Shown here piece after piece: positions 1,006-25,253 of a stretch of 26,552 nt of DNA. Made by a program: the position numbers and the translations under genes. A model generated the notes under the pieces. It made no database searches, had not been told where the DNA came from, and saw only the letters and a list, made by a program, of their open reading frames with translations. Position 1 is the stretch's first letter, and each line of letters opens with the position of its first letter. The stretch comes from a virus. The DNA is taken from IMG/VR virus record IMGVR_UViG_3300028025_002519, positions 1 to 26,552 of that record; one strand, given 5' to 3'.

Positions 1006-1914
1006 ATGGCTATTTCTCGTGCCCAACTACTTAAAGAGCTCCTCCCAGGCCTAAACGCATTGTTTGGTTTGGAGTATGCGACTTATGGTGAACAACATAA
1101 AGAGATCTATGATACTGAGACCTCTGAACGTTCGTTCGAAGAAGAAACTAAGTTGTCTGGCTTTAGTGCCGCCCCAGTGAAAAACGAAGGCAGTGCAATT
1201 GCTTATGACAACGCACAAGAGGCTTTCACAGCTCGCTATACCCACGTAACGATCGCTCAAGGCTTCAGCTTAACTGAAGAAGCTATTGAAGATAACTTGT
1301 ATGACAGCTTATCCGCTCGTTATACCAAGGCGTTAGCTCGTTCCATGGCGTATACCAAGCAAGTTCGTGCTGCTTCTGTGTTAAACAATGGCTTTAGCGC
1401 TAGTTTTCCAGGCGGTGATGGCGTAGCTTTATTTGCTACTGACCATCCACTAGTCTCTGGCGGAACTAACTCAAACGAACCTGCTGTTCCAGCTGACCTT
1501 AACGAAACTTCCTTGGAAGCCGCTGTTATTCAGATTGCTGCATGGACGGATGAGCGTGGTCTGTTGATCGCTGCTAAACCTAAGAAGTTAATCGTTCCAC
1601 CCGCACTACAGTTCGTGGCAACTCGTTTGCTAGAAACCGAACTCCGTGTTGGTACAGCGGATAACGACATTAATGCATTAAAGAACAACGGTTCGATCCC
1701 AGGAGGTTATACAGTTAATAACTACCTGACCGACACCAATGCTTGGTTCTTGTGCACTGATGTTCCAAACGGCATGAAGCACTTTATTCGTACACCATTG
1801 CAAAACAGCATGGACGGTGACTTTGACACCGGTAACGTACGTTACAAGTCTCGTGAGCGTTATTCCTTCGGATTCTCGGATCCACTAGGAATGTTTGGTT
1901 CGCCAGGAGCGTAA
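1006..1914 (+). CDS. Major capsid protein, HK97-fold (Mu gpT-like)
   Basis: A 302-residue protein that builds the icosahedral head shell. The N-terminal part is acidic and helical (about residues 1-60), followed by a mixed alpha/beta body. The segment around FATDHPLVSGGTNSN (about 142-156) and the late segment NVRYKSRERYSFGFSDP (about 279-295) are typical of the Mu-like major head subunit gpT group of HK97-fold capsid proteins. Length fits that group, which often lacks the long scaffolding delta domain. Start: ATG with TAAGGAGCTT upstream, 11 nt after the preceding gene. A strong terminator follows the stop, as expected for a highly expressed capsid gene. Assignment to the capsid is fairly secure; the exact subfamily is from memory. 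Confidence 0.85.
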   Translation: MAISRAQLLKELLPGLNALFGLEYATYGEQHKEIYDTETSERSFEEETKLSGFSAAPVKNEGSAIAYDNAQEAFTARYTHVTIAQGFSLTEEAIEDNLYDSLSARYTKALARSMAYTKQVRAASVLNNGFSASFPGGDGVALFATDHPLVSGGTNSNEPAVPADLNETSLEAAVIQIAAWTDERGLLIAAKPKKLIVPPALQFVATRLLETELRVGTADNDINALKNNGSIPGGYTVNNYLTDTNAWFLCTDVPNGMKHFIRTPLQNSMDGDFDTGNVRYKSRERYSFGFSDPLGMFGSPGA

Positions 1915-3449: not shown

Positions 3450-3935
3450 ATGATGCAAACCGATGTTAAATCGTATCGTGCGGCAGCGTCTGGAGTCGCT
3501 ACCACAAACCCTGTACGCTTAAAAAACGTAACAGTTACTAGTGCTACTGTATCTGCAAGAAATATAGCAGTTGCAGATCCAACGGTTTCAAAATCTGGCA
3601 CTTGGAGTCGTACTGGAACACTAGTTACGGTTACGATTAACAACAATGGTTTAACAAATGGTCAGCGGGTGTTTTTGGATGTTGCTGCTGGAACCACTAT
3701 GCGTGATGGGGTATATGAAGTATCTAACGTTGCAACCAATACGTTTACAGTTACTTCCGCTACAACAGGGTCTGCAACTGGTACGGTAACGATGTACACA
3801 AATATTTATGTTGAACTAGATACATTTAACACAATAGGTTTGCCTGTTCTTATTCCAGGTGAAGGCATTAATTGCCCTAACGGTATTTTTGTTGGGGTTG
3901 GATCAAGCGTAACAGCAACGGTGTACTATGGCTAA
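3450..3935 (+). CDS. Beta-rich virion protein, paralogue 2
   Basis: A 161-residue protein aligned along its whole length with its upstream neighbour: a DVKS motif near the start, the beta motif VTINNNGLTNGQRVFLDV and NTFTVTS in the middle, VLIPGEGIN near residue 140 and a SVTATVYYG end. Only the framework residues are shared, so the duplication is old. It begins 6 nt after the first copy. Its end overlaps the next gene by 8 nt. Two divergent copies suggest different sites on the virion or a hetero-oligomer; neither can be shown here. Confidence 0.6.
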   Translation: MMQTDVKSYRAAASGVATTNPVRLKNVTVTSATVSARNIAVADPTVSKSGTWSRTGTLVTVTINNNGLTNGQRVFLDVAAGTTMRDGVYEVSNVATNTFTVTSATTGSATGTVTMYTNIYVELDTFNTIGLPVLIPGEGINCPNGIFVGVGSSVTATVYYG

Positions 3936-4248
3936 ATCCCCTGCATGGACTCGCAAAGAGGGTAAGAACCCTGAAGGCGGCTTAAATGCTAAGGGTAGAG
4001 CTTCGTACAATGCAGCCAATCCTGGCAAACCTGGACTTAAACGTCCACAGCCAGAGGGTGGTTCAAGGCGTGATTCCTTCTGCGCCCGTATGAAGGGTAT
4101 GAAGAAAAAGCTAACCAGCGCTAAAACTGCTAACGATCCAGATAGCCGCATCAATAAGTCCCTACGGGCTTGGAACTGCAAAGAAGGCGGAGCCGTGCGT
4201 GGTGATGGATGTGAAGTTCGTGGTAAGACTAAAGGGAAAATGGTGTAA
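3928..4248 (+). CDS. Small basic protein with GKTKG tail
   Basis: A 106-residue, strongly basic protein with no membrane segment. The N-terminal half is rich in Lys, Gly, Asn and Pro (PAWTRKEGKNPEGGLNAKGR); the centre has SRRDSFCARMKGMKKKLTSA and then INKSLRAWNC. From memory this arrangement matches a domain of unknown function seen in phages (DUF6321-like), which I cannot check. The last 23 residues (EGGAVRGDGCEVRGKTKGKMV) form the first, divergent copy of the GG-to-GKTKG tail found in the next genes. It overlaps the preceding gene by 8 nt and is 2 nt from the following one, so it is in the same operon. A DNA-binding or virion-internal role fits the charge but is unproven. Confidence 0.65.
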   Translation: MAKSPAWTRKEGKNPEGGLNAKGRASYNAANPGKPGLKRPQPEGGSRRDSFCARMKGMKKKLTSAKTANDPDSRINKSLRAWNCKEGGAVRGDGCEVRGKTKGKMV

Positions 4249-4250
4249 TC

Positions 4251-4547
4251 ATGGACTTAATTAAACAGCAAGGTAATGTAATTAAACAAATAGGAAGTGG
4301 TTTAGTTGCTCCTGGGATATCTGATGCTATTAATAGTTTTGTAGACACCGCTACCGGTGATGCTGGTAAATCCCAAGACGAAAAGATTAGAGCTTTGGAA
4401 GCTGAAGTTGCTGCGGGTAGAAAAACCAAACAACAGGCTCAAGCGGAAGTCGGTATGAAAAAAGGCGGTAAGGTAAAAGTATCCTCCGCTTCTAAACGTG
4501 CTGACGGCATAGCAGTTAAAGGTAAAACCAGAGGACGGATAGTCTGA
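4251..4547 (+). CDS. Small protein with RADGIA-GKTRGRIV tail
   Basis: A 98-residue protein in two parts. Residues 1-65 are helical and mixed-charge, with a GKSQDEKIRALEAEVAAGRK segment likely to form a coiled coil. Residues 69-98 form the fullest copy of the shared basic tail: MKKGGKVKVSSASKRADGI then AVKGKTRGRIV. The stop overlaps the next start (TGATG). The N-terminal part has no counterpart in the neighbours, while the tail does, so the tail behaves as a portable module. Function unknown; the tail could be a targeting, DNA-binding or processing element. Confidence 0.65.
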   Translation: MDLIKQQGNVIKQIGSGLVAPGISDAINSFVDTATGDAGKSQDEKIRALEAEVAAGRKTKQQAQAEVGMKKGGKVKVSSASKRADGIAVKGKTRGRIV

Positions 4548-4789
4548 TGGAAATGATGCTATGGAACATGGTGTTAACGGTGCTTCTTGGGGTGCTTGCC
4601 TATATTGGGCATGAAAAAGCCTCTGAAATACAACGCCTTAACATATTATTAAACAAAACTCGTGAGGAGATAGCTCGTGATAACGTTACTCAAGCAGAAA
4701 TTGACCGCATTATGCAGCACATTGACCAGCGCTTTAACAAGCTTGAAAGCAAAATTGACCAACTTATTCAAAGCAAAATAAATGCCTAG
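4547..4789 (+). CDS. Membrane-anchored coiled-coil protein
   Basis: An 80-residue protein with one N-terminal transmembrane helix (about residues 5-21, MLWNMVLTVLLGVLAYIG) followed by a long charged helix to the end, with heptad-like spacing in ITQ- and LESKIDQLIQ-type segments. This is the architecture of many small phage membrane proteins, including inner-membrane spanins, but it lacks the length and Pro-rich end of a typical spanin and sits far from the lysis genes. It starts on the TGATG overlap with the previous gene and overlaps the next gene by 8 nt. It is the only member of this cluster without the basic tail. Role unknown. Confidence 0.6.
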   Translation: MEMMLWNMVLTVLLGVLAYIGHEKASEIQRLNILLNKTREEIARDNVTQAEIDRIMQHIDQRFNKLESKIDQLIQSKINA

Positions 4790-5252
4790 TGTAAGTAAAA
4801 AGCAACATAATTTCATGGCGGCTGTGGCTAATAACCCAAAGTTTGCCAAAAAAGCAGGTGTATCTTCCGCTGTAGGGAAGGAATTTTTAACTGCCGACAA
4901 AGGCAAAACTTTTAAAGAAGGTGGAACTATGAAAAAGATGAATCCAGGAATGATGGCTATCATGGCTAAAAAGAAACCTATGAAAATGGCTGACGGCGGT
5001 ATGCCGATGGTTGAGAAGGACGGCAAAAAAGTCCCAGCGTTTGCTGCTGATGGCGTAGGCAAAATGAAAAAAGGCGGTATGGCGCATTCAGACATTGCCA
5101 AAGACAAACCAATGATGAAGAAAGTTGCTGCTAAAGCTGTTAAAGGTCATGAGAAGCGTTTGCACGGTATGGCTAAAGGCGGCGGCATTGAGATCAAAGG
5201 CAAAACTAAAGGCAAAATGATTAGAATGAACAAAGGCGGAAGAGCCTGCTAA
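4782..5252 (+). CDS. Lys/Met/Gly-rich basic protein with repeated GG motifs
   Basis: A 156-residue protein with a very high Lys, Met and Gly content. The N-terminal 45 residues (PSVSKKQHNFMAAVANNPKF, then AKKAGVSSAVGKEFL) are a recognisable module of phage proteins, superficially like DUF3008-type SKKQxxFM motifs. The rest is low-complexity with spaced motifs EGGTM, ADGGMP, KKGGMAHSDIA, KGGGIEIKGKTKGKM and a final NKGGRAC. The GKTKGKM element is a copy of the shared tail, here followed by 10 more residues ending in Cys. Strong positive charge suggests nucleic-acid contact inside the head, an inference only. It overlaps the preceding gene by 8 nt and abuts the next without a gap. Confidence 0.65.
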   Translation: MPSVSKKQHNFMAAVANNPKFAKKAGVSSAVGKEFLTADKGKTFKEGGTMKKMNPGMMAIMAKKKPMKMADGGMPMVEKDGKKVPAFAADGVGKMKKGGMAHSDIAKDKPMMKKVAAKAVKGHEKRLHGMAKGGGIEIKGKTKGKMIRMNKGGRAC

Positions 5253-5648
5253 ATGGTTAAGCGTGTAAACCCTATTTCTTCTACATCCCAAATAGATTTG
5301 GGATTTGGGGCTGATCCTGAGCAATTGCAAAAGGGTAGACCTGCAGATCCGGGGTACAAAGAAATACACGAGAAACACAATCCACCAGAAAAGGACCAAA
5401 AAGGTAAAGCCGCCGAGAACAAAGAGTTTGCAGATAAACGTCAACCACAAAGTCCTTTAATTCGTCAAGAAGCCCTTAATCAGATGAAACAAATGCTAAA
5501 TATGGCGGGCACTGCCGGTGATCTTGAAAAAGGTATGATGGGTAGCAGGCTTAAAAAGCCAAACTATAAGTCTGGTGGCAAAGTAAGTGCATCATCCCGT
5601 GCTGATGGTATAGCCAAGCGTGGTAAAACTAAAGGAAGGATTGTGTAA
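5253..5648 (+). CDS. Basic protein with RADGIA-GKTKGRIV tail
   Basis: A 131-residue hydrophilic protein. The N-terminal 60 residues are disordered-looking, with many Pro, Lys and Glu (KGRPADPGYKEIHEKHNPPE); the centre is helical (SPLIRQEALNQMKQMLNMAG). The last 27 residues repeat the shared tail: YKSGGKVSASSRADGIAKRG then KTKGRIV, almost the same as the tail at 4460-4545 though codons differ at many positions. The stop shares one base with the next start (TAATG). The unrelated N-terminus attached to a conserved tail again supports a modular element. Function unknown. Confidence 0.65.
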   Translation: MVKRVNPISSTSQIDLGFGADPEQLQKGRPADPGYKEIHEKHNPPEKDQKGKAAENKEFADKRQPQSPLIRQEALNQMKQMLNMAGTAGDLEKGMMGSRLKKPNYKSGGKVSASSRADGIAKRGKTKGRIV

Positions 5649-5941
5649 TGCCTGATTATCGTAAACCCACAGAAAAAGAAACCGAAAAGCTCAATAAAGC
5701 CCGCAAAATGATGGGCGAGGGTATTGAAGGTGAAAAAGATATTTTTTCTAAAATCTCTACTATTGCTGCTAAAAACGCTCGTGGCGACATACGAGCAGCT
5801 AGAAAATTAGCCGAATCTGTTCCTGCAGACGCCCGTGAGGGTGAGGCATATGAGTATGCTGGGTATAAAAAAGGTGGCAAAGTATCTAGTGCTTCCAAAC
5901 GAGCTGATGGCATAGCAATTAGAGGGAAGACAAGAGCATGA
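5648..5941 (+). CDS. Small helical protein with shortened RADGIA tail
   Basis: A 97-residue protein. Residues 1-70 are charged and helical, with segments TEKETEKLNKARKMMGEG and AARKLAESVPADAREGEAY. The tail runs YKKGGKVSSASKRADGIAI then RGKTRA and stops, lacking the GRIV end seen in its relatives. The stop overlaps the next start by 4 nt (ATGA), so the end may have been trimmed when that overlap formed. The start lies on a TAATG overlap with the previous gene. The protein resembles small phage proteins of unknown role; the tail ties it to the neighbouring set. Confidence 0.65.
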   Translation: MPDYRKPTEKETEKLNKARKMMGEGIEGEKDIFSKISTIAAKNARGDIRAARKLAESVPADAREGEAYEYAGYKKGGKVSSASKRADGIAIRGKTRA

Positions 5942-6219
5942 GAGCTAGTCGTGGTATGGGCGCCATAAGCCCTTCTAAGATGCCTAAAGGGGTTAAGAGA
6001 GCTCGCAGAGATGACACGGACTTTACGCAATATAAAGAAGGCGGTAAGGTTTCAAAGGTTAATGAAGCAGGTAACTATACCAAGCCTGGTTTGCGTAAAC
6101 GGATCTTTAACAGTATCAAAGCCGCTGCGGTACAAGGCACTGGCGCAGGTCAATGGTCAGCCCGCAAAGCCCAGTTAATGGCTAAACGCTACAAAGCAGC
6201 AGGCGGGGGCTACAAGTGA
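5938..6219 (+). CDS. Basic protein, N-part of a DUF5872-like domain
   Basis: A 93-residue basic protein. It begins MRASRGMGAISPSKMPKGVK and continues with ARRDDTDFTQYKEGGKV, which carries the GG element, then a segment NYTKPGLRKRIFNSIKAA and finally GQWSARKAQLMAKRYKAAGG before GYK at the end. From memory the QWSARKAQ...YKxxGGGY segment is the first half of a DUF5872-like region known from large DNA viruses and phages, whose second half here begins in the next gene. It overlaps the previous gene by ATGA and the next by 4 nt (GTGA). Function unknown; likely a virion or DNA-associated basic protein. Confidence 0.65.
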   Translation: MRASRGMGAISPSKMPKGVKRARRDDTDFTQYKEGGKVSKVNEAGNYTKPGLRKRIFNSIKAAAVQGTGAGQWSARKAQLMAKRYKAAGGGYK

Positions 6220-6563
6220 AATGGTCAGACAAGCGCAAAAAGTCGATCAACTGCGACAGCCCAAAGGGGTTCTCGGAGAAGGCTCATTGCGCCAGCAAAA
6301 AGAAGAAGATGGTGGGGGGTGGTTTAGCAAAATCACAGCAATCTTTAAAAGCTTGGGGCGACCAAGAGTGGACAACCAAGTCAGGGAAGAAGTCATCCGA
6401 GACGGGCGAGAGATACCTGCCCAAGAAGGCAATCGAAGCGTTAAGCCCACAAGAGTACGCAGCAACGACACGGGCAAAACGGCAAGGAAAAGCACAGGGA
6501 AAACAGTTCGTGCCCCAGCCAAAAACAGTAAAAGCAAAAGTAAAACCGTATAGGAAGATATGA
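6216..6563 (+). CDS. Basic protein, C-part of a DUF5872-like domain
   Basis: A 115-residue basic protein using a GTG start that overlaps the previous stop (GTGA). The N-terminal 38 residues contain INCDSPKGFSEKAHCASKKK, with two Cys, and a GGGLAK turn. The rest, from SLKAWGDQEWTTKSGKKSSE through TGERYLPKKAIEALSPQEY and AATTRAKRQGKAQGKQFV to the basic end, looks like the second half of a DUF5872-like region (recalled, not searched). A 110-residue open frame at 6221-6553 overlaps it but gives low-complexity sequence without these motifs. Its stop overlaps the adaptor start by 4 nt (ATGA), coupling the basic cluster to the adaptor. Function unknown. Confidence 0.7.
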   Translation: MKWSDKRKKSINCDSPKGFSEKAHCASKKKKMVGGGLAKSQQSLKAWGDQEWTTKSGKKSSETGERYLPKKAIEALSPQEYAATTRAKRQGKAQGKQFVPQPKTVKAKVKPYRKI

Positions 6564-7492
6564 CTACTACAGGTACCACATCTTTTAATCTAGACATGAA
6601 CGACCTCATTGAGGAGGCGTTTGAACGAGTTGGTATGGAAGTTCGGTCTGGTTATGATTTCCGTACTGCACGACGGTCTTTGAACTTGCTTACCATTGAG
6701 TGGGCAAACCGGGGTATTAATCTCTGGACGGTTGAGCAGGGTCAAATTGTTATGAACACAAGACAGGCTATTTATGCTCTGCCTGTGGATACGATTGATA
6801 TTCTAGATGCCGTGACTCGTACAAATAACGGTAGCCAGTCTAATCAGATTGACATTAATTTAAGTCGTATTAGTGAATCTACCTATATTACGATCCCAAA
6901 CAAAAATACCAGCGGACGTCCTATTCAGATGTGGATTAACCGCCAAAGTGGGGGTAGCTCTTCTCTTGCCCAAACAACCCTAAACGGTGGAATTGACGCA
7001 GATGACACAACTATTACCTTAGTTAATGCTGCTAACCTCCCAACTCAGGGGTTTGTCAATATTGACAACGAGACCATTGGCTATCAGAACATCGTAGGGA
7101 ATCAGATCTTAAACGCTTGGCGTGGTCAGAACGGTACCACAGCTGCGTCTCATTCAACAGCGGCAAGCGTGTTTAACAACCAGCTTCCTTCAATTAATGT
7201 CTGGCCTACCCCTAACCCACCAGGCAATCAATTTACTTTAGTTTATTACCGTATGCGTCGTATTCAAGATGCTGGTGGTGGTATCCGCACCCAAGATATC
7301 CCATTTCGTTTTATACCCTGCATGGTGGCAGGGCTTGCGTATTACCTTAGCATGAAGATTCCTGGTGTTGACCCCGGACGCATCCCAATGCTTAAATCCG
7401 ATTACGAACAACAATGGGACTTAGCTTCTACGGAAGATAGGGAAAAAGCCGCTATTCGCTTTGTACCTCGTAACTCGTTTTATTACAGATAA
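6560..7492 (+). CDS. Head-tail adaptor protein 1 (T7 gp11-like) with insert
   Basis: A 310-residue protein. The N-terminal helices (MNDLIEEAFERVGMEV and RRSLNLLTIEWANRGINLW, residues 13-55) and the segment after them (IYALPVDTIDILDAV) match the adaptor or tail-tubular fold of podoviruses, a ring docking under the portal and receiving the nozzle. The helical C-terminal part (PFRFIPCMVAGLAYYLSMKI, then YEQQWDLASTEDREKA) closes the fold. Residues about 131-206 form an inserted beta domain with FVNIDNETIGYQNIVGNQI and WRGQNGTTAASHS, common in phage virion proteins. Start ATG overlaps the previous stop by 4 nt. Adaptor assignment is from motif memory and context; a head-completion protein of another type is the alternative. 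Confidence 0.75.
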   Translation: MTTTGTTSFNLDMNDLIEEAFERVGMEVRSGYDFRTARRSLNLLTIEWANRGINLWTVEQGQIVMNTRQAIYALPVDTIDILDAVTRTNNGSQSNQIDINLSRISESTYITIPNKNTSGRPIQMWINRQSGGSSSLAQTTLNGGIDADDTTITLVNAANLPTQGFVNIDNETIGYQNIVGNQILNAWRGQNGTTAASHSTAASVFNNQLPSINVWPTPNPPGNQFTLVYYRMRRIQDAGGGIRTQDIPFRFIPCMVAGLAYYLSMKIPGVDPGRIPMLKSDYEQQWDLASTEDREKAAIRFVPRNSFYYR

Positions 7493-7497
7493 ATGAT

Positions 7498-7923
7498 ATG
7501 CCGAGTAAATTTGCTTCAGGTAAGTATGCAATTGCCGAATGTGACCGATGTGGTCAGCGGTATAAGCTTAAGGAATTAAAGATTCAGATATTAAAGACAA
7601 AACCGTATCAAGTTAAGGTATGTTCCTCTTGTTGGGATCCAGATCAGCCTCAGTTGTTATTAGGCTTGTATCCAGTAAATGACCCACAGGCGGTGCGGGA
7701 TCCAAGACCAGACGTAAGTTATTTAGTATCTGGACAAAGTGGTTTACAGATTAATATTACAGGTGTAGGCCCAGATGGGTTTGGTAGTCCAGAAATGGGT
7801 AGTAGAGTAATACAATGGGGTTGGAACCCTGTAGGGGGTAGTAGAGGACCCGATGCAGGATTAACCCCAAATGACTTGGTACAACAAGTAATTGTTGGTA
7901 CAGTAACGGTAACGACAACTTAA
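7498..7923 (+). CDS. Zinc-ribbon phage structural protein
   Basis: A 141-residue protein. An N-terminal zinc ribbon is visible: C15-x2-C18 and C42-x2-C45 separated by 23 residues, within AECDRCGQRYKLKELKI and VKVCSSCWD. The remainder is Gly/Pro/Val rich, with a RDPRPDVSYLVSGQSG segment and an end in VGTVTVTTT. A similar end, LGTVTVTTV, occurs in the small protein at 20450-20791. The gene starts 5 nt after adaptor 1 and is followed by two small basic proteins and adaptor 2, so it may be a neck component. The zinc ribbon is visible in sequence; the virion role is inferred from position. Confidence 0.6.
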   Translation: MPSKFASGKYAIAECDRCGQRYKLKELKIQILKTKPYQVKVCSSCWDPDQPQLLLGLYPVNDPQAVRDPRPDVSYLVSGQSGLQINITGVGPDGFGSPEMGSRVIQWGWNPVGGSRGPDAGLTPNDLVQQVIVGTVTVTTT

Positions 7924-7933
7924 GGAGTTAAAA

Positions 7934-8125
7934 ATGTATAAATCAGGCGCAGACGGCATTACCAAACAGGGCAAAACCAAAGGTAAAAACCTAGGTAATT
8001 CAGGTCCAACAGTAGCTATTGAAAAAGGTCCAAAACACAGCGGCTCTAAAGGCGGCAAAACCAATGCAGATATGAAAAAAATGGGTCGTGGTCTTGCAAA
8101 GATTGCTGCTCAAAAGAAAGGTTAA
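7934..8125 (+). CDS. Small basic protein with N-terminal GKTKG motif
   Basis: A 63-residue, very basic protein that begins with the shared element: MYKSGADGITKQGKTKGKNL. Elsewhere this element is at the C-terminus; here it opens the protein. The remainder is Lys/Gly-rich (IEKGPKHSGSKGGKTNAD, MKKMGRGLAKIAAQKKG) with a short helical end. Start ATG has TAAGGAG upstream at good spacing. It is separated from the main cluster by the adaptor and the zinc-ribbon gene, which suggests that the module is distributed across the virion operon. A DNA- or RNA-binding function fits the charge but is not shown. Confidence 0.6.
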   Translation: MYKSGADGITKQGKTKGKNLGNSGPTVAIEKGPKHSGSKGGKTNADMKKMGRGLAKIAAQKKG

Positions 8126-14835: not shown

Positions 14836-16005
14836 GTGTGTGAACAAATGAATATTTTTAACTCGCAAGGATATGTACATTTACAAGATTTTTTGGATAA
14901 AGAAAATTGCGCACAACTTATAACTGAACTGCGCAAATTAATCGGACAAGGTAAAACAGTTAAAGATGAGCAATGTCCTTTATCACAAGCTATTCATGGA
15001 GCATCCGTATTTGATTCTTTACTTGAGCAACTTACCCCGCATTTTGAACAAGCTTCTGGCAAAAAACTATACCCAACTTATGCGTACGCAAGATTATATG
15101 CTCCGGGCGAAGAGTTAAAGATTCATACGGATCGTTCGGCTTGTGAGATTAGCGCCACCCTAACCCTTGGATTTAATGGCGATGTCTGGCCCATTTATGT
15201 TGGTGACTACACTGATGCTGGGCAGGGTAGGGAAGTGACCATTGAAGATGGGTCTACCAAATACCTTACCAACGAAGCTGAAATTATTATGTCTGCGGGC
15301 GATGCAGTGCTTTACCGTGGTATGAACAAGGCTCACTGGAGAAACCCATACAAAGAGGGTAACTGGCAGGCTCAAGTTTTCTTACACTATGTAGATGCTG
15401 ATGGTCCACACGCTGAATGGAAGTACGATAAGCGACCTAAACTTTCTCATCACAGAGAACCAGACTATACCTTTTGGCATTTTTCTGATGCTATGACTCC
15501 TGAAGCGGCTAAAAAACTAATTGAAAGTCTTGAGATACAGACACATGGCGTCGATGCGCAGGTTGGCATAGGTCTTGACGGAGTGCTTAACAAAGAAATT
15601 CGTGATGTAAAAAAAGTTACTTTACATTCATATCGTGGTATTGGTGCAACCATGGCTGGTATGGGGATGGCGGCTAATCGACAAGCTTGGAAGTTTGACG
15701 TAACCCACTCCAATCAAACCGACTATCTTAGGTACGACAAAGATGGTCACTATAAGGCGCACGTAGATACATTTATAAAACCAGACGATAAAGAAACACG
15801 TAAATTAACGGTGCTTGTGTTTCTTAATAATGACTTTGAGGGCGGCAAGTTATTCCTACAAAATGGTGACGAAAAAATATATCCACCTCAAGACCCCGGC
15901 ACATGTTTAGTGTTCCCGTCATTTATGATGCACGGTGTGGAACCCGTTACAAAAGGTATTAGAAGGTCAATTGTGACTTGGCTGGTTGGGCCCTGGTTTA
16001 AATAA
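14836..16005 (+). CDS. Double-domain 2OG-Fe(II) oxygenase
   Basis: A 389-residue protein with two dioxygenase domains. Domain 1 (about 5-195) has H97-x-D99 (KIHTDRSACE) and distal H167 (KAHWRNP), with QVFLHYVDADGP at its end. Domain 2 (about 210-389) is prolyl-4-hydroxylase-like: H309-x-D311 (YKAHVDTF), distal H366 (MMHGVEP) and R376 (KGIRRS) as the likely 2OG-binding residue. These enzymes use Fe(II), O2 and 2-oxoglutarate to hydroxylate protein, nucleotide or small-molecule substrates. The GTG start at 14836 is preferred over ATG 14848 because GAGG sits 8 nt upstream. Domain 1 lacks the Arg at H+10 (a Trp there), so its cofactor binding may differ. Its place after the Pro-Gly-rich adhesin suggests a virion substrate, an inference. 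Confidence 0.85.
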   Translation: MCEQMNIFNSQGYVHLQDFLDKENCAQLITELRKLIGQGKTVKDEQCPLSQAIHGASVFDSLLEQLTPHFEQASGKKLYPTYAYARLYAPGEELKIHTDRSACEISATLTLGFNGDVWPIYVGDYTDAGQGREVTIEDGSTKYLTNEAEIIMSAGDAVLYRGMNKAHWRNPYKEGNWQAQVFLHYVDADGPHAEWKYDKRPKLSHHREPDYTFWHFSDAMTPEAAKKLIESLEIQTHGVDAQVGIGLDGVLNKEIRDVKKVTLHSYRGIGATMAGMGMAANRQAWKFDVTHSNQTDYLRYDKDGHYKAHVDTFIKPDDKETRKLTVLVFLNNDFEGGKLFLQNGDEKIYPPQDPGTCLVFPSFMMHGVEPVTKGIRRSIVTWLVGPWFK

Positions 16006-20833: not shown

Positions 20834-22420
20834 ATGGGAACCGGTGTAGGCGAGGCGATGTTAATTGGAGCTGCTGTTGGTGGCGGTACATCCGCTATTA
20901 CGGGCGGTGATCCTCTAAAAGGTGCCATAATAGGTGCTGCTGGTGGTGGTTTTGGTTCTGCTCTTGGCGCTGCGGGTACTGCATTTGATCCAACGGCTTT
21001 AGCTGGGGCAACTGAACTTGGTTCTGTAGCTGGTACAAGTTCATTAAATGCTGCAATAGACCCTAGTTTAGCTAGTGTTAATTTTGGCACAATGACCCCC
21101 CAAGCCGTAGGTCAGGGTGTTTCTTCCGGCACAATTCCTATAGAAGCTGCTAACCAATATGGTCAATCTTTCAGTCAAGCTTTTGAAGGTATTAAACCGA
21201 CAAATACACCCTTTTCAATTAGAGACTTTATTAGCAAAGCCCCAACGCCGGATATTACAGGAAGCCCAGAGGCTCAAAAACAAGTTGCCCAAGCAACAGG
21301 TAAGAATATTTTTGGATACATGCCTGGAGACAAAGGATTTTTGTCTGACACTACATTAGCCGCAATTGGTGGTGGTAGCGCTCTTTTAGGGAGAAAAGAT
21401 TCTTCAGGTTTGCCTGGCGAAGAAGACTATGTAAGTAGTTTTGATCCATCTAAATTTATACGATCCACCCCAACATACGCCCCTGGAAGCGTGTATGTGC
21501 CTGAGTATAAAACTTATGCTGCCGAGGGTGGGATTATGCAAGCCTATCAAGCTGGCGGCCCCGTAGAACGTATGTCGATGATGAACACGGCTATGAATCC
21601 CCAAGGAGGTCTATACCCCCAAGGCATGATTGATAAGACCCAGTACGCCACTCCTACACAGCGCCCAGTAAGTGCTGAGATGGTAGATGCAGCCCCTGCC
21701 TATGAGCGATCTAATCCCATGTTAATGGCTGAAGGTGGTCAAATTCCAATAAGCTTACAAGGGTCAGTTAATTTAAACCCAAATAACATGGCTTCACGAG
21801 CATTTTCAGGGGCAGCGACTAGCGGACCTAGTATGGGTAACAGCACCGATATGATGCTCCCGCAGCCAGCTCTTCTTCCACGATTTGAAGGACAAAGGAC
21901 TGGCGGTCCTGGTATGGGTCCACAAGGGCAAATATCTCCAGGAGGACCAGGAGGAATCGGTGCGGCACAACTAGCTGTTTTGCCAAGGACAATGGCTGAA
22001 GGTGGTATTGCAGGAATCCTAGAAGCTGCTAAATCACAAGGATATACCCCTATGGAGTACGACCAGATCTATGGACGGGGTAACGCCTTACAAGACATGC
22101 AAGCAGCCATGAAACGGGCTAAATACGCTAGTGGCGGTATTTCTTCATTAGGAGGCTACTCCGACGGCGGCAGAATGCTTAAAGGTCCTGGTGATGGTAT
22201 GTCTGACTCCATTCCTGGCGTTATTGCTGGTAAGCAGCCTGCTCGTTTGGCTGACGGAGAATTTGTAGTACCTGCTGATGTTGTTAGCCACCTAGGTAAT
22301 GGTTCAACTGATGCTGGCGCTAAACGGCTATATTCTATGATGGATAAGGTTCGTAAGGCTAGAACAGGCAATAAAAAGCAAGGCAAACAGATTAACCCGA
22401 ATAGATTTATGCCCGCATGA
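20834..22420 (+). CDS. Putative internal virion / ejection protein
   Basis: A 528-residue protein. Residues 1-60 are Gly/Ala-rich, membrane-active in look (LIGAAVGGGTSAITGG, then GAIIGAAGGGFGSALGAAG). The middle is low-complexity with repeated GG motifs at about 230 (YAAEGGIMQAYQAGGPV), 300 (MAEGGQIP), 385 (MAEGGIAG) and 431 (YASGGISS). The C-terminal part (about 440-510) has GPGDGMSDSIPGVIAGKQPA then RLADGEFVVPADVVSHLG, a motif I recognise in large internal phage proteins. The GG motifs resemble those of the basic cluster. It overlaps the next gene by ATGA. An ejected or internal core protein is likely; the motif's function is unknown to me. Confidence 0.65.
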   Translation: MGTGVGEAMLIGAAVGGGTSAITGGDPLKGAIIGAAGGGFGSALGAAGTAFDPTALAGATELGSVAGTSSLNAAIDPSLASVNFGTMTPQAVGQGVSSGTIPIEAANQYGQSFSQAFEGIKPTNTPFSIRDFISKAPTPDITGSPEAQKQVAQATGKNIFGYMPGDKGFLSDTTLAAIGGGSALLGRKDSSGLPGEEDYVSSFDPSKFIRSTPTYAPGSVYVPEYKTYAAEGGIMQAYQAGGPVERMSMMNTAMNPQGGLYPQGMIDKTQYATPTQRPVSAEMVDAAPAYERSNPMLMAEGGQIPISLQGSVNLNPNNMASRAFSGAATSGPSMGNSTDMMLPQPALLPRFEGQRTGGPGMGPQGQISPGGPGGIGAAQLAVLPRTMAEGGIAGILEAAKSQGYTPMEYDQIYGRGNALQDMQAAMKRAKYASGGISSLGGYSDGGRMLKGPGDGMSDSIPGVIAGKQPARLADGEFVVPADVVSHLGNGSTDAGAKRLYSMMDKVRKARTGNKKQGKQINPNRFMPA

Positions 22421-22848
22421 ATTTAAGGATTCAGCCAGTTGGAGTCGATTATGTTGCACAGACTTGGACTTTTGTTGAAGAGTTTTTAAAAGAAGCTTTA
22501 GAAAAAGGAGACCCTGTTCCGCAGTGGAGTGATAACTACGATATATCGCATGTACAAGGATTTTTGACTTCTGGGGTGTGGACGTTGTTAGTAGCCACTG
22601 ACAAAGAGAATAAAATACATGGTGCTGCAACGGTATCGTTTGCTAATTATCCTAAGAACAGAGTAGCTTTTATAACGCTTATTGGTGGAAAATTAATATC
22701 TAATCAGGATACGTTTGCACAAATGAGCAACATACTAAGACATGCTGGAGCAACAAAGATTCAAGGAATGGCTCGTCCCGCTATAGCCAGATTGTGGAAG
22801 CGGTATGGGTTTGAAGAACGCACTACTTTAGTGGAAGTAAAACTATGA
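22417..22848 (+). CDS. GNAT-like protein in virion operon
   Basis: A 143-residue protein with a GNAT N-acetyltransferase-like layout: a helical N-terminus (YVAQTWTFVEEFLKEALEKG), a strand ILVATDKENKIHGAATVSFA-type central region (actual text around VATDKENKIHGAATVSFA), and a C-terminal WKRYGFEERTTLVEVKL, the usual last strand. I see no clear R/Q-x2-G-x-G/A acetyl-CoA loop. It overlaps both neighbours by 4 nt, inside the internal-protein operon. Phages such as T7 have a GNAT-like internal core protein at this position (gp13), so a structural role is as likely as an enzymatic one. Confidence 0.65.
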   Translation: MNLRIQPVGVDYVAQTWTFVEEFLKEALEKGDPVPQWSDNYDISHVQGFLTSGVWTLLVATDKENKIHGAATVSFANYPKNRVAFITLIGGKLISNQDTFAQMSNILRHAGATKIQGMARPAIARLWKRYGFEERTTLVEVKL

Positions 22849-25253
22849 GCATATTAAGATCAAAACACAGCGGTTGGACCTGGGAAGGTAGACGTACTCC
22901 TTTTGGTGGTCCTAGTGGTGGAGGCGGTCCTCAACAAACTACTTCTTATCAAACTAACCTTCCTGAATACGCCAAACCTTATGTAGAAACCATGTTGGGC
23001 ACTGCTCAGAAGCAGGCTTATAAATATGACCCCGAGGGCAATGTTGTAGGTTTCCAACCTTATATACCTTATGGTGCCACCGTAGGTCCTGGTGGGGAGA
23101 TTACTAATACAGCGCAAGAACAAGCCCAAGCAGCAGTGGCTGGGTTTAGTCCTATGCAAGAACGGGCGTTTCAACAAACGGCAGATTTAAGAGTTCCGGG
23201 TCAGTACGGTGTTGGTAGTCAGTTTGCTGGTGCAGGCGGTATGGGTGCGGCGAATATAGCGCAACAAGCTGCGGGGATTGGGCAGGGATATTATGGGATG
23301 GCTACTAATCCATATGCTCAACAAGCATTTATGTCGCCCTATATGCAGAATGTGGTGGATGTTCAAAAGCAAGAAGCTATCCGTGACTATGGAAAAATGT
23401 TACCAGGCATGCAGGCACAAGCTACTCGTCAAGGAGCGTTTGGTGGAAGTCGTCAAGCTATTGAAGCAGCTGAAGCTCGCCGTAATTTAGGTACACAACT
23501 AGGACAGATTCAAGCTCAAGGATCGCAAAAGGCATTTGAAGCTGGTCAACAAGCTCAACAGTTTGGAGCTAATTTAGGTCTTCAAGGTCTTCAAACAGGA
23601 CTTCAAGGCACTGGGCAATTAACTAGCGCAGGTAAAGCTTTAGCCGATATTGGTGGACAAGAACTACAAGCCCGTCAGGGTATTATTGGTCTACAGTCTC
23701 AAGCTGGTGCACAACAACAGGCTCTTGAACAGCAACGAGTTAACCAGGCTATTCAAAATTACGCTTTGCAGCAACAAAACCCACAGATGCAGTTATCTTT
23801 AATGAGCAGTTTGCTACGGGGTTTACCTTTACAACAAGCTACTACACAAACATATCAAGCATCTCCAAGTGCTCTTTCTCAAATTGGTGGTCTGGGTGCC
23901 GCAGGTGTAGGTATGTATGGTATGGGTCGCTCTGCCGGTATTTTTGGTAAAGAAGGTGGACATGTTAAGAAGTTAGCTAGTGGTGGTATTACAGGGCTGT
24001 CTAAGAAAGTATTGTTAAATCCTGAAGACTTTTCTACTGAACAAGTTAAAAGCATGACTGATAAAGGTATGATTTCCCAGTTAGTCGGTGCCCCGATTCT
24101 TGATGCCAAGATGAAAGACGAGCAACGCATGAAGCTTGCTCAAGCTGCTCAACAACCTAAGCCTATTGATACTATCGCCGCTGACATTATGGCTAGAGCC
24201 GCAGCCAGCCAAGGTATTGATAATGCGCAAAGTAACTTACCTGTTATGTCCGCATTTGACGGTGGTATTGTTGCCATGGCTGATGGTGGTGAAGTAGATG
24301 ACGATGGAGTAGCACGATTCCAAACTGGTGGTAGATCAGCGTTTATGGAAGACATAGAACGGTTTGGAGACTATGCAGTACCAAATCTAGGTATTACTAA
24401 AAAATTAAAAGAACTTGGTAGTTACTTTACAAAACCTCGTCAATCTACCATGTCTCCTGGTGACGTTGACGTACAGCCAGGATATACCCCAAGTTCAGCC
24501 CCAGCTCCATTTCCTCCAGAAGCAGCAAAACCACGTTTTCTACCTGACGAACCTAGAGCAAATGCAGCTGCACCCACAGCTCCAGCCCCTTCTGTTGCAG
24601 ATACAGGTGGTAAGGGTATTGCTGACATTCTTAAGAGATTTGAAGAAGCTCAGGGCAAAGGCGAACAAAGGGATACAGAAGCTAAAAAGATGGCGTTCTG
24701 GTCTTCGTTGGCTCAGCTTGGCTTTGGTGCTATGGGCGGTACTTCTCGTGACGCTCTTACTAATATTGGTCAAGCAGGTGCTCCAGCCGTAGCTTCTGGT
24801 ATGAAAGCATTAGCTGATATTGAGGGACGCCAAGAAAAACGTGGTCTTGCCCAGCTCCAAGCTGCACTTGAAGGTGAAAAACTTAAAGCCGAATACAGCA
24901 AACTTGGCATGATGCAACCATACTACAAAGAATATGCAAATTATTTAGCTCGTCGTCAAGGTTCTACAGGTACGGCTGGTATGGGTAGTGTTCCTTTCGG
25001 TGAATTCCGTAAACTTAAATCACAGTATGATGGTTATCTAACGGATGGTAAAACTGTGCAAGCTTCTCCATTAGCTAAATACTTAACTAAAGATGAACTT
25101 AATGCCTTAAAAGCTAGCCCTGGCACTCCTTCTTATGACCGAGGTATGGCTAGAGCAGCTGAGGTTGCAAAACAAAGAATGGACGCAGAGTTACGAGAAG
25201 GCATGCAATACACTGCTAAACAAAGAGTTGCTTCACCCGTAGAAGATCTTTAA
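22845..25253 (+). CDS. Large Gln/Ala/Gly-rich internal virion protein
   Basis: An 802-residue protein. The N-terminal part contains PEYAKPYVETMLGTAQKQAY and FSPMQERAFQQTADL, followed by a Gln/Ala-rich helical segment (about 180-330) with ATRQGAFGGSRQAIEAAEAR and many QQ pairs. GG motifs recur at about 369 (KEGGHVKKLASGGITG) and 470-495 (FDGGIVAMADGGEVDDDG, RFQTGGRSAF). The C-terminal part has MMQPYYKEYANYLARRQG. I recall such proteins in podovirus-like environmental phages as internal or ejection proteins. Start ATG overlaps the GNAT-like stop by 4 nt; TAAGGAG follows at its end for the next gene. Role: probably part of the internal core that is ejected with DNA; not proven. Confidence 0.65.
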   Translation: MSILRSKHSGWTWEGRRTPFGGPSGGGGPQQTTSYQTNLPEYAKPYVETMLGTAQKQAYKYDPEGNVVGFQPYIPYGATVGPGGEITNTAQEQAQAAVAGFSPMQERAFQQTADLRVPGQYGVGSQFAGAGGMGAANIAQQAAGIGQGYYGMATNPYAQQAFMSPYMQNVVDVQKQEAIRDYGKMLPGMQAQATRQGAFGGSRQAIEAAEARRNLGTQLGQIQAQGSQKAFEAGQQAQQFGANLGLQGLQTGLQGTGQLTSAGKALADIGGQELQARQGIIGLQSQAGAQQQALEQQRVNQAIQNYALQQQNPQMQLSLMSSLLRGLPLQQATTQTYQASPSALSQIGGLGAAGVGMYGMGRSAGIFGKEGGHVKKLASGGITGLSKKVLLNPEDFSTEQVKSMTDKGMISQLVGAPILDAKMKDEQRMKLAQAAQQPKPIDTIAADIMARAAASQGIDNAQSNLPVMSAFDGGIVAMADGGEVDDDGVARFQTGGRSAFMEDIERFGDYAVPNLGITKKLKELGSYFTKPRQSTMSPGDVDVQPGYTPSSAPAPFPPEAAKPRFLPDEPRANAAAPTAPAPSVADTGGKGIADILKRFEEAQGKGEQRDTEAKKMAFWSSLAQLGFGAMGGTSRDALTNIGQAGAPAVASGMKALADIEGRQEKRGLAQLQAALEGEKLKAEYSKLGMMQPYYKEYANYLARRQGSTGTAGMGSVPFGEFRKLKSQYDGYLTDGKTVQASPLAKYLTKDELNALKASPGTPSYDRGMARAAEVAKQRMDAELREGMQYTAKQRVASPVEDL

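What the first reader, a model, noticed from the sequence alone, without database searches (positions are those of the whole stretch)
3928..8125. Portable basic tail shared by a run of small phage proteins
Seen: five genes carry related tails at or near the C-terminus. Those at 4251, 5253 and 5648 read GGKV...SRADGIA (or SKRADGIA)...GKTxG; those at 3928 and 4782 keep GG...RGKTKGKM or KGKTKGKM. The bodies in front of the tails are unrelated. Between the tails at 4251 and 5648 I count eleven synonymous codon differences among conserved residues (both Gly of GG, Lys, three Ser, Arg, Asp, Gly, Lys, Thr). Inference: the peptide is selected and is not a recent DNA duplication. It could be a virion-loading tag, a DNA-binding tail or a processing site. 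I know of no described function for it.
Basis: partly seen in the sequence, partly recalled or inferred. Interest (0 to 1): 0.8.

Follow-up and report, generated by a model that had tools for sequence, protein, structure and literature searches.

The report
Shared end-tag on phage operon proteins
A large group of freshwater and soil phages attaches the same short, conserved peptide to the ends of several otherwise unrelated small basic proteins made next to the capsid genes, most likely an address label that brings them into the virus particle, although this has not been shown experimentally.

Summary
Six window genes carry the peptide: five at or near the C-terminus, and a sixth (7934) at its N-terminus. 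An HMM trained without the window finds exactly these six. A profile over 120 IMG/VR contigs finds 329 copies, against 2 in reversed decoys. Consensus of the C-terminal form: GG-x-V-SSAS-[KSR]-R-A-D-G-[IC]-A-x-[RK]-G-K-T-[RK]-G-[KR]-[MIF]-[VCI]-COOH. Bodies fall into about 94 families. dN/dS between copies on unrelated bodies in one contig is 0.18 (0.14-0.22). In the DUF6321 family, 43 members end bare at ...W[NK]C and 14 add exactly this tag, so it is portable. Carriers always lie between head genes and the portal adaptor. All 30 MCP-selected relatives with at least 5.5 kb of downstream sequence have it, with none in 223 kb upstream. Held literature, Pfam, NCBIfam and PDB have no description. 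I favour a virion-loading or docking tag, working like T4 capsid-targeting sequences or encapsulin cargo-loading peptides but homologous to neither (0.45). A DNA-binding hook is the main rival. No virion proteomics was available, so mechanism is inferred.

The parts
4180..4245 (+). C-terminal tag of gene 3928-4248, a 22-residue extension after the DUF6321 domain (KEGGAVRGDGCEVRGKTKGKMV)
   Evidence: HMM E 3e-7
3928..4179 (+). DUF6321 (PF19846) body; homologues in 43 of 57 cases end here without a tag
4464..4544 (+). C-terminal tag of gene 4251-4547 (GGKVKVSSASKRADGIAVKGKTRGRIV)
   Evidence: E 2e-14
5178..5222 (+). near-C-terminal tag of gene 4782-5252 (GGGIEIKGKTKGKMI, followed by RMNKGGRAC)
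   Evidence: E 4e-4; same place in the homologues
4782..4913 (+). N-terminal 3-helix module (SKKQHNFMAAVANNPKFAKKAGV...) shared with phiKZ-like jumbo phages; the rest of the protein is predicted disordered
5574..5645 (+). C-terminal tag of gene 5253-5648 (GGKVSASSRADGIAKRGKTKGRIV)
   Evidence: E 3e-13
5873..5938 (+). C-terminal tag of gene 5648-5941, truncated (GGKVSSASKRADGIAIRGKTRA); its last codons overlap the start of gene 5938
   Evidence: E 7e-13
7949..7987 (+). N-terminal copy of the tag core in gene 7934-8125 (the protein starts MYKSGADGITKQGKTKGKNLGNSGPTV)
   Evidence: E 4e-5; same arrangement in more than 20 contigs
5938..6219 (+). companion small basic gene with GG element but no tag; family found in all tagged genomes tested, absent from tag-less relatives
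6216..6563 (+). companion small basic gene (phrog_14910), no tag; family found in all tagged genomes tested, absent from tag-less relatives
1006..1914 (+). major capsid protein (Mu gpT type, phrog_371), always upstream of the tag cluster
6560..7492 (+). portal-adaptor protein; its homologue in phage DSL-LC04 matches Pfam SU10_adaptor; lies immediately downstream of the cluster

Best explanation
The peptide is a portable docking tag that takes a set of 3-6 small, basic, mostly disordered late proteins into the assembling virion, most likely the procapsid interior or the head-adaptor vertex. Shown: it is one conserved sequence on many unrelated bodies. It sits at a protein end (mostly the exact C-terminus, sometimes 10-20 residues in, and N-terminal in one family), usually behind a GG/Ser linker. 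It is gained or lost as a unit, kept by purifying selection, and encoded only in the block between the head genes and the adaptor genes. Inferred: a virion component (scaffold, portal, capsid protein or adaptor) binds the ADG[IC]Ax[RK]GKT[RK]G core, so any protein carrying it is loaded, perhaps to neutralise DNA or to be ejected with it. This works like T4 capsid-targeting sequences or encapsulin cargo-loading peptides, without homology to either.
For: Portability: about 94 body clusters; DUF6321 proteins end bare (43) or carry exactly this tag (14), never another extension, with at least 2 and most likely about 6 gains or losses on their tree. An EF-hand-like body (DLTGDGK...KGRGVF) carries the tag in L009, L044 and L053 but a different C-terminus in HTVC027P and G001. 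Selection: dN/dS 0.18. Specific sequence rather than charge alone: D -14 176/181, G -13 181/181, G -8 181/181, K -7 179/181, T -6 181/181, G -4 173/181, while R and K swap freely at -9, -5 and -3. Location: no contig of 119 has a head gene downstream of its tags; 99 have tail or adaptor genes downstream and 59 head genes upstream; all tags in a contig share a strand. MCP-selected relatives: 30 of 30 have tags, 94/94 on the MCP strand and downstream, 0 in 223 kb upstream. In ten large contigs (about 580 kb) no convincing copy lies outside this block. Carriers: pI median 10.2, 293/310 disordered by charge-hydropathy, against 28/329 and pI 5.0 for other virion and packaging proteins. The GG element before the tag is also enriched in two tail-module proteins, one with a weak match to a DNA-ejection family. 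T4 internal proteins are likewise small and basic with a shared terminal targeting peptide (PMC9026906). Encapsulin tags may be C- or N-terminal, with the cargo gene beside the shell gene (PMC7355545).
Against: No carrier phage has virion proteomics in the sources held. No receptor is identified: tag similarity correlated only weakly with any head or adaptor protein and not with the MCP. Relatives with capsid proteins 63-66% identical to the window's (HTVC023P, DSL-LC04, 023Pt) assemble without the tag. No carrier body has a recognisable enzyme or effector domain, unlike T4 Alt or encapsulin cargo. Position in a virion operon shows late expression at best, not incorporation. In homologous-body pairs the tag is no more conserved than the matched part of the body.
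Confidence: 0.45

Rival explanations
1. The tag is a DNA-binding hook: paired [KR]-G-[KR] units ([KR]GKT[KR]G[KR]) on flexible basic proteins bind the minor groove or the phosphate backbone and condense or protect packaged or replicating phage DNA.
For: Carriers are very basic (median pI 10.2); R/K exchange freely at three positions; [KR]G[KR] resembles AT-hook or Lsr2/H-NS type hooks (own knowledge). The invariant spine fits the Walker-A pattern G-x4-GK-T in 179/181 tags, a phosphate-binding signature.
Against: Invariant acidic D and A/G/T residues, a K almost never replaced by R at -7, and hydrophobic residues at the last two positions are not needed for a charge-based hook. The usual AT-hook core RGRP is absent. 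No P-loop fold context: no hydrophobic strand before it and a Gly right after it.
Confidence: 0.27
2. The tag is a processing site: a phage protease cuts at the GG before the tag or inside it during head maturation and releases the body or a basic peptide.
For: A conserved GG precedes the tag, and GG elements recur in other virion-module proteins. T4 targeting sequences are cleaved propeptides.
Against: No protease was recognised in the conserved head module (portal, scaffold, 152-aa, deco, MCP) by PHROGs or NCBIfam, nor by Pfam in the DSL-LC04 homologues. The conserved part extends 19 residues beyond GG to the terminus, more than a cleavage site needs, and the N-terminal copies lack the GG.
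Confidence: 0.08
3. The tag acts in the infected cell rather than in the virion, for example as a localisation, degradation or host-complex-binding signal on proteins that are made late or injected.
For: A terminal short linear motif on unrelated proteins is the usual form of such signals; the last two residues are hydrophobic.
Against: Strict linkage to the block between capsid and adaptor genes and absence elsewhere in about 580 kb of related phage contigs. A general localisation signal should also appear on early or replication proteins.
Confidence: 0.12
4. The tag is a recombinational or gene-conversion relic: a short coding segment that spreads between neighbouring small genes without function.
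For: Within one contig tags are more alike than between contigs (0 of 2000 shuffles as high), and synonymous codons are also shared more than codon usage predicts (0.52 against 0.37), so the copies share DNA ancestry.
Against: dN/dS 0.18, upper bootstrap bound 0.22; fixed core across more than 100 contigs; dS about 1.6 between copies in one contig.
Confidence: 0.04

Closest known systems
T4 capsid-targeting sequences (internal proteins IPI, IPII, IPIII)
   Same: Short shared terminal peptide on small basic proteins with otherwise divergent bodies (PMC9026906).
   Different: T4's is N-terminal, 10-19 residues, loads into the scaffold core and is removed by gp21. Here it is mostly C-terminal, unrelated in sequence, with no recognised head protease, in phages with a Mu gpT-type capsid protein.
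Encapsulin cargo-loading peptides
   Same: Short conserved peptide, usually C-terminal and sometimes N-terminal, on unrelated proteins encoded beside an HK97-fold shell gene (PMC7355545).
   Different: Different sequence, no enzyme cargo, a phage rather than a nanocompartment; docking to the shell not shown.
DUF6321 (PF19846)
   Same: Body of gene 3928; widespread in marine T4-like cyanophages and pelagiphages.
   Different: DUF6321 is a body that may or may not carry the tag; the tag is not part of the Pfam domain.
UMO75986.1 of cultured Planktothrix phage Pag-Yong1 (same locus in MinM2 and Pra-JY27)
   Same: Ends ...YASGGMIGRDGCAKRGRTKGRFI and lies between the capsid/minor capsid and portal-adaptor genes.
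   Different: Only one tagged protein seen in the stretch read, with a more diverged tag.

Membership tests
T4-type capsid-targeting sequence | terminal peptide shared by several proteins with divergent bodies | tested here: met
T4-type capsid-targeting sequence | N-terminal position | tested here: not met
   197 exactly C-terminal, 97 within 10-22 residues of the C-terminus, about 24 N-terminal
T4-type capsid-targeting sequence | removed by a prohead protease | tested here: inconclusive
   no protease recognised in the head module; cleavage itself needs mass spectrometry
T4-type capsid-targeting sequence | sufficient to package a fused protein into the head | not testable with these tools
   needs a phage or expression experiment
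Encapsulin cargo-loading peptide | conserved peptide at the end of unrelated proteins encoded beside an HK97-fold shell gene | tested here: met
   MCP assigned to phrog_371; HK97 fold of that family from own knowledge
Encapsulin cargo-loading peptide | binds the inner surface of the shell | not testable with these tools
   no tag-bearing solved structure; no multi-chain prediction available
Encapsulin cargo-loading peptide | enzyme cargo | tested here: not met
   140 carriers scanned, no enzyme family
AT-hook or Lsr2/H-NS DNA-binding motif | [KR]G[KR] core | tested here: met
   [RK]GKT[RK]G[KR] in the consensus
AT-hook or Lsr2/H-NS DNA-binding motif | binds AT-rich DNA | not testable with these tools
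   needs a binding assay
P-loop NTPase (Walker A) | G-x4-G-K-[ST] within a strand-loop-helix fold | tested here: not met
   pattern in 179/181 tags but no hydrophobic strand before it and Gly after it; the tag of 4782 is predicted disordered
DUF6321 (gene 3928 body) | PF19846 above gathering score | tested here: met
   68.7 bits against 28.5

The most novel reading that the evidence does not exclude
A widespread uncultured lineage of short-tailed-type phages uses one short terminal peptide as a general address code for loading a variable set of disordered basic proteins into its heads: a phage counterpart of encapsulin cargo tags, independent of T4's, with new cargo recruited by acquiring the tag.
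Probability: 0.4. Interest if true: 0.8.

Novelty: new variant of a known kind. Interest (0 to 1): 0.62.

Why it matters
If the tag loads proteins into the virion, it gives a sequence rule for finding internal proteins in a very common uncultured phage group. Such proteins are otherwise invisible because they are short, disordered and share no similarity. It would also be a second, independent instance of targeting-peptide loading in phage heads. Even without that function, it is an undescribed, strongly conserved and portable peptide that sorts hundreds of unannotated proteins into one functional group.

Tried and rejected
Tblastn of the tag alone in cultured phages and in plasmids found nothing; the Pag-Yong1 copy was found only by reading its locus. 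A library search for the tag letters gave only chance strings. The match in a Patulibacter MAG (613-aa acyltransferase ending in a tag, L172) sits at a contig end and looks like a chimeric assembly, so I discarded it. Co-variation between tag and partner proteins was weak and not decisive. Families present in all tagged and no tag-less genomes (65-aa gene after portal; 5938 and 6216 families) were considered as receptors, but nothing beyond co-occurrence supports it. AlphaFold2 of 4782 gave only an N-terminal helical module, the rest disordered. Walker-A and AT-hook readings were kept only as leads. Regex-based dN/dS is biased by the fixed residues, so the HMM-based value is used; that set still has one copy per contig chosen by DNA pattern. 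My codon-usage expectation comes from long ORFs and is rough. The GG-element pattern was chosen after seeing the sequences.
Full report
What was checked. Its count of eleven synonymous codon differences between the tails of 4251 and 5648 is correct: 22 aligned codons, 8 identical, 11 synonymous, 3 nonsynonymous. A profile HMM built from 155 tags of other contigs, with none from the window, finds six window genes: 3928, 4251, 4782, 5253, 5648 and, new, 7934, where the peptide is at the N-terminus. No other window ORF matches significantly. The 5648 copy is cut short (RADGIAIRGKTRA) because its end overlaps the next start codon.

Recurrence. With a profile, 329 copies are found in 120 contigs against 2 in reversed decoys. 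The C-terminal form reads, from -19 to -1: A S [KSR] R A D G [IC] A x [RK] G K T [RK] G [KR] [MIF] [VCI], usually preceded by GG and Ser-rich residues. Placement: 197 end exactly at the C-terminus, 97 lie 10-22 residues before it with a second GG-containing end, and about 24 are N-terminal in one small-protein family downstream of the adaptor gene. About 94 body clusters are found among 151 bodies.

Portability. DUF6321 (PF19846, the body of 3928) gives a natural test. Of 57 members in these contigs, 43 end at ...W[NK]C and 14 continue with this tag; none has another extension. The tag changes state about six times on the best tree (4-7 in bootstraps, at least 2 forced; the tree has few columns). 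An EF-hand-like body occurs with the tag (L009, L044, L053) and with a different C-terminal module (HTVC027P, G001).

Selection. Between copies on unrelated bodies in one contig (90 pairs, 56 contigs) dS is 1.59, dN 0.28, dN/dS 0.18, bootstrap range 0.14-0.22. Copies within a contig are more alike than between contigs (variable-site identity 0.50 against 0.40, 0 of 2000 shuffles) and also share more codons than codon usage predicts, so they share ancestry, but not a recent one. Fixed residues are D, G, G, K, T, G, while R and K swap freely at three sites, which points to specific recognition rather than charge alone. One caution: in homologous-body pairs the tag is no more conserved than the locally aligned part of the body (73.7% against 77.5%).

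Genomic setting. The window is a 26.5 kb virus record. Its capsid protein belongs to the Mu gpT type (phrog_371), with relatives in Planktothrix phage Pag-Yong1, DSL-LC04, pelagiphages HTVC023P/027P and Roseobacter phages. In larger tagged contigs the order is TerL, portal, GroES, coiled-coil scaffold candidate, 152-aa protein, deco, MCP, cement-like genes, tagged cluster, adaptor, second adaptor-like gene, tail genes. Over 119 tag-bearing contigs, 59 have head genes upstream, 99 have adaptor or tail genes downstream, none has a head gene downstream, and tags are always on one strand per contig; the three contigs without landmarks are short. Four contigs have an adaptor gene upstream of a tag, and in these the tag is an N-terminal copy. 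As a check not selected by the tag, 30 contigs chosen only by capsid protein (about 86% identity or more) with at least 5.5 kb downstream all have 1-5 tags, all downstream on the same strand; none lies in 223 kb upstream. Eight matches exist in 85,000 bacterial genomes: four contigs hold tag-like protein ends (all metagenome bins, one of them probably a chimera, plus further chance matches). More distant relatives (HTVC023P, HTVC027P, DSL-LC04, 023Pt, CRP-902, Caulobacter RW) show no tag in the stretches read; several (HTVC023P, DSL-LC04) keep small basic genes at this place. So the tag belongs to one lineage, with a single diverged copy in Pag-Yong1.

Nature of the carriers. Tagged proteins are short (median 126 aa), very basic (median pI 10.2) and 293 of 310 are predicted disordered by charge and hydropathy, against 28 of 329 capsid, portal, packaging, adaptor and tail proteins. 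AlphaFold2 of 4782 gives an N-terminal three-helix module and a disordered remainder including the tag. That module also forms small proteins of phiKZ-like jumbo phages and begins proteins annotated as virion structural, which is suggestive only. No enzyme domain was found in 140 carriers. The GG element in front of the tag ([YFMLI][AKSRN]xGG) is enriched about 19-fold over shuffles in tagged proteins and 4-5-fold in two tail-module proteins, one of which weakly matches a DNA-ejection family.

Mechanism. Most likely the peptide is a docking tag for virion incorporation. Shown: conservation, portability, terminal placement, selection and location. Inferred: the binding partner and the incorporation itself. 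The main rival is a DNA-binding hook ([RK]GKT[RK]G[KR]); the two need not exclude each other. A processing site is less likely because no protease is recognised in the head module and the conserved segment is long.

Relation to known systems. It works like T4 capsid-targeting sequences (PMC9026906) and encapsulin cargo-loading peptides (PMC7355545), but it is a member of neither: position, sequence and cargo differ, and sufficiency for loading is untested. No description was found in the held literature, Pfam, NCBIfam or PDB. Absence from open-licence papers does not prove that it is undescribed.

Noticed in passing
20834-22420 and 22845-25253: Two large tail-module proteins carry many [YFM]AxGG elements like those before the tag; one weakly matches a DNA ejection family. 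The GG element may be a wider virion-associated motif.
   Followed up: partly
L137:17268-17465 (G002), between portal and GroES: A 65-aa acidic protein family (CGxIRGLxxA motif) present in all seven tagged genomes tested and in none of seven tag-less relatives.
   Followed up: partly
window 5938-6563: Two further small basic families (phrog_17747, phrog_14910) found with the tag cluster in nearly all contigs but themselves untagged; absent from tag-less relatives.
   Followed up: partly
14836-16005: Protein matching PHROGs labelled ferrochelatase in its first half and 2OG-Fe(II) oxygenase in its second half, in the tail region; related genes lie in the tail region of HTVC023P.
   Followed up: no
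L172:165-2003: Patulibacter MAG contig ends in an acyltransferase reading frame fused to a tag; probably a chimeric assembly with phage DNA.
   Followed up: yes
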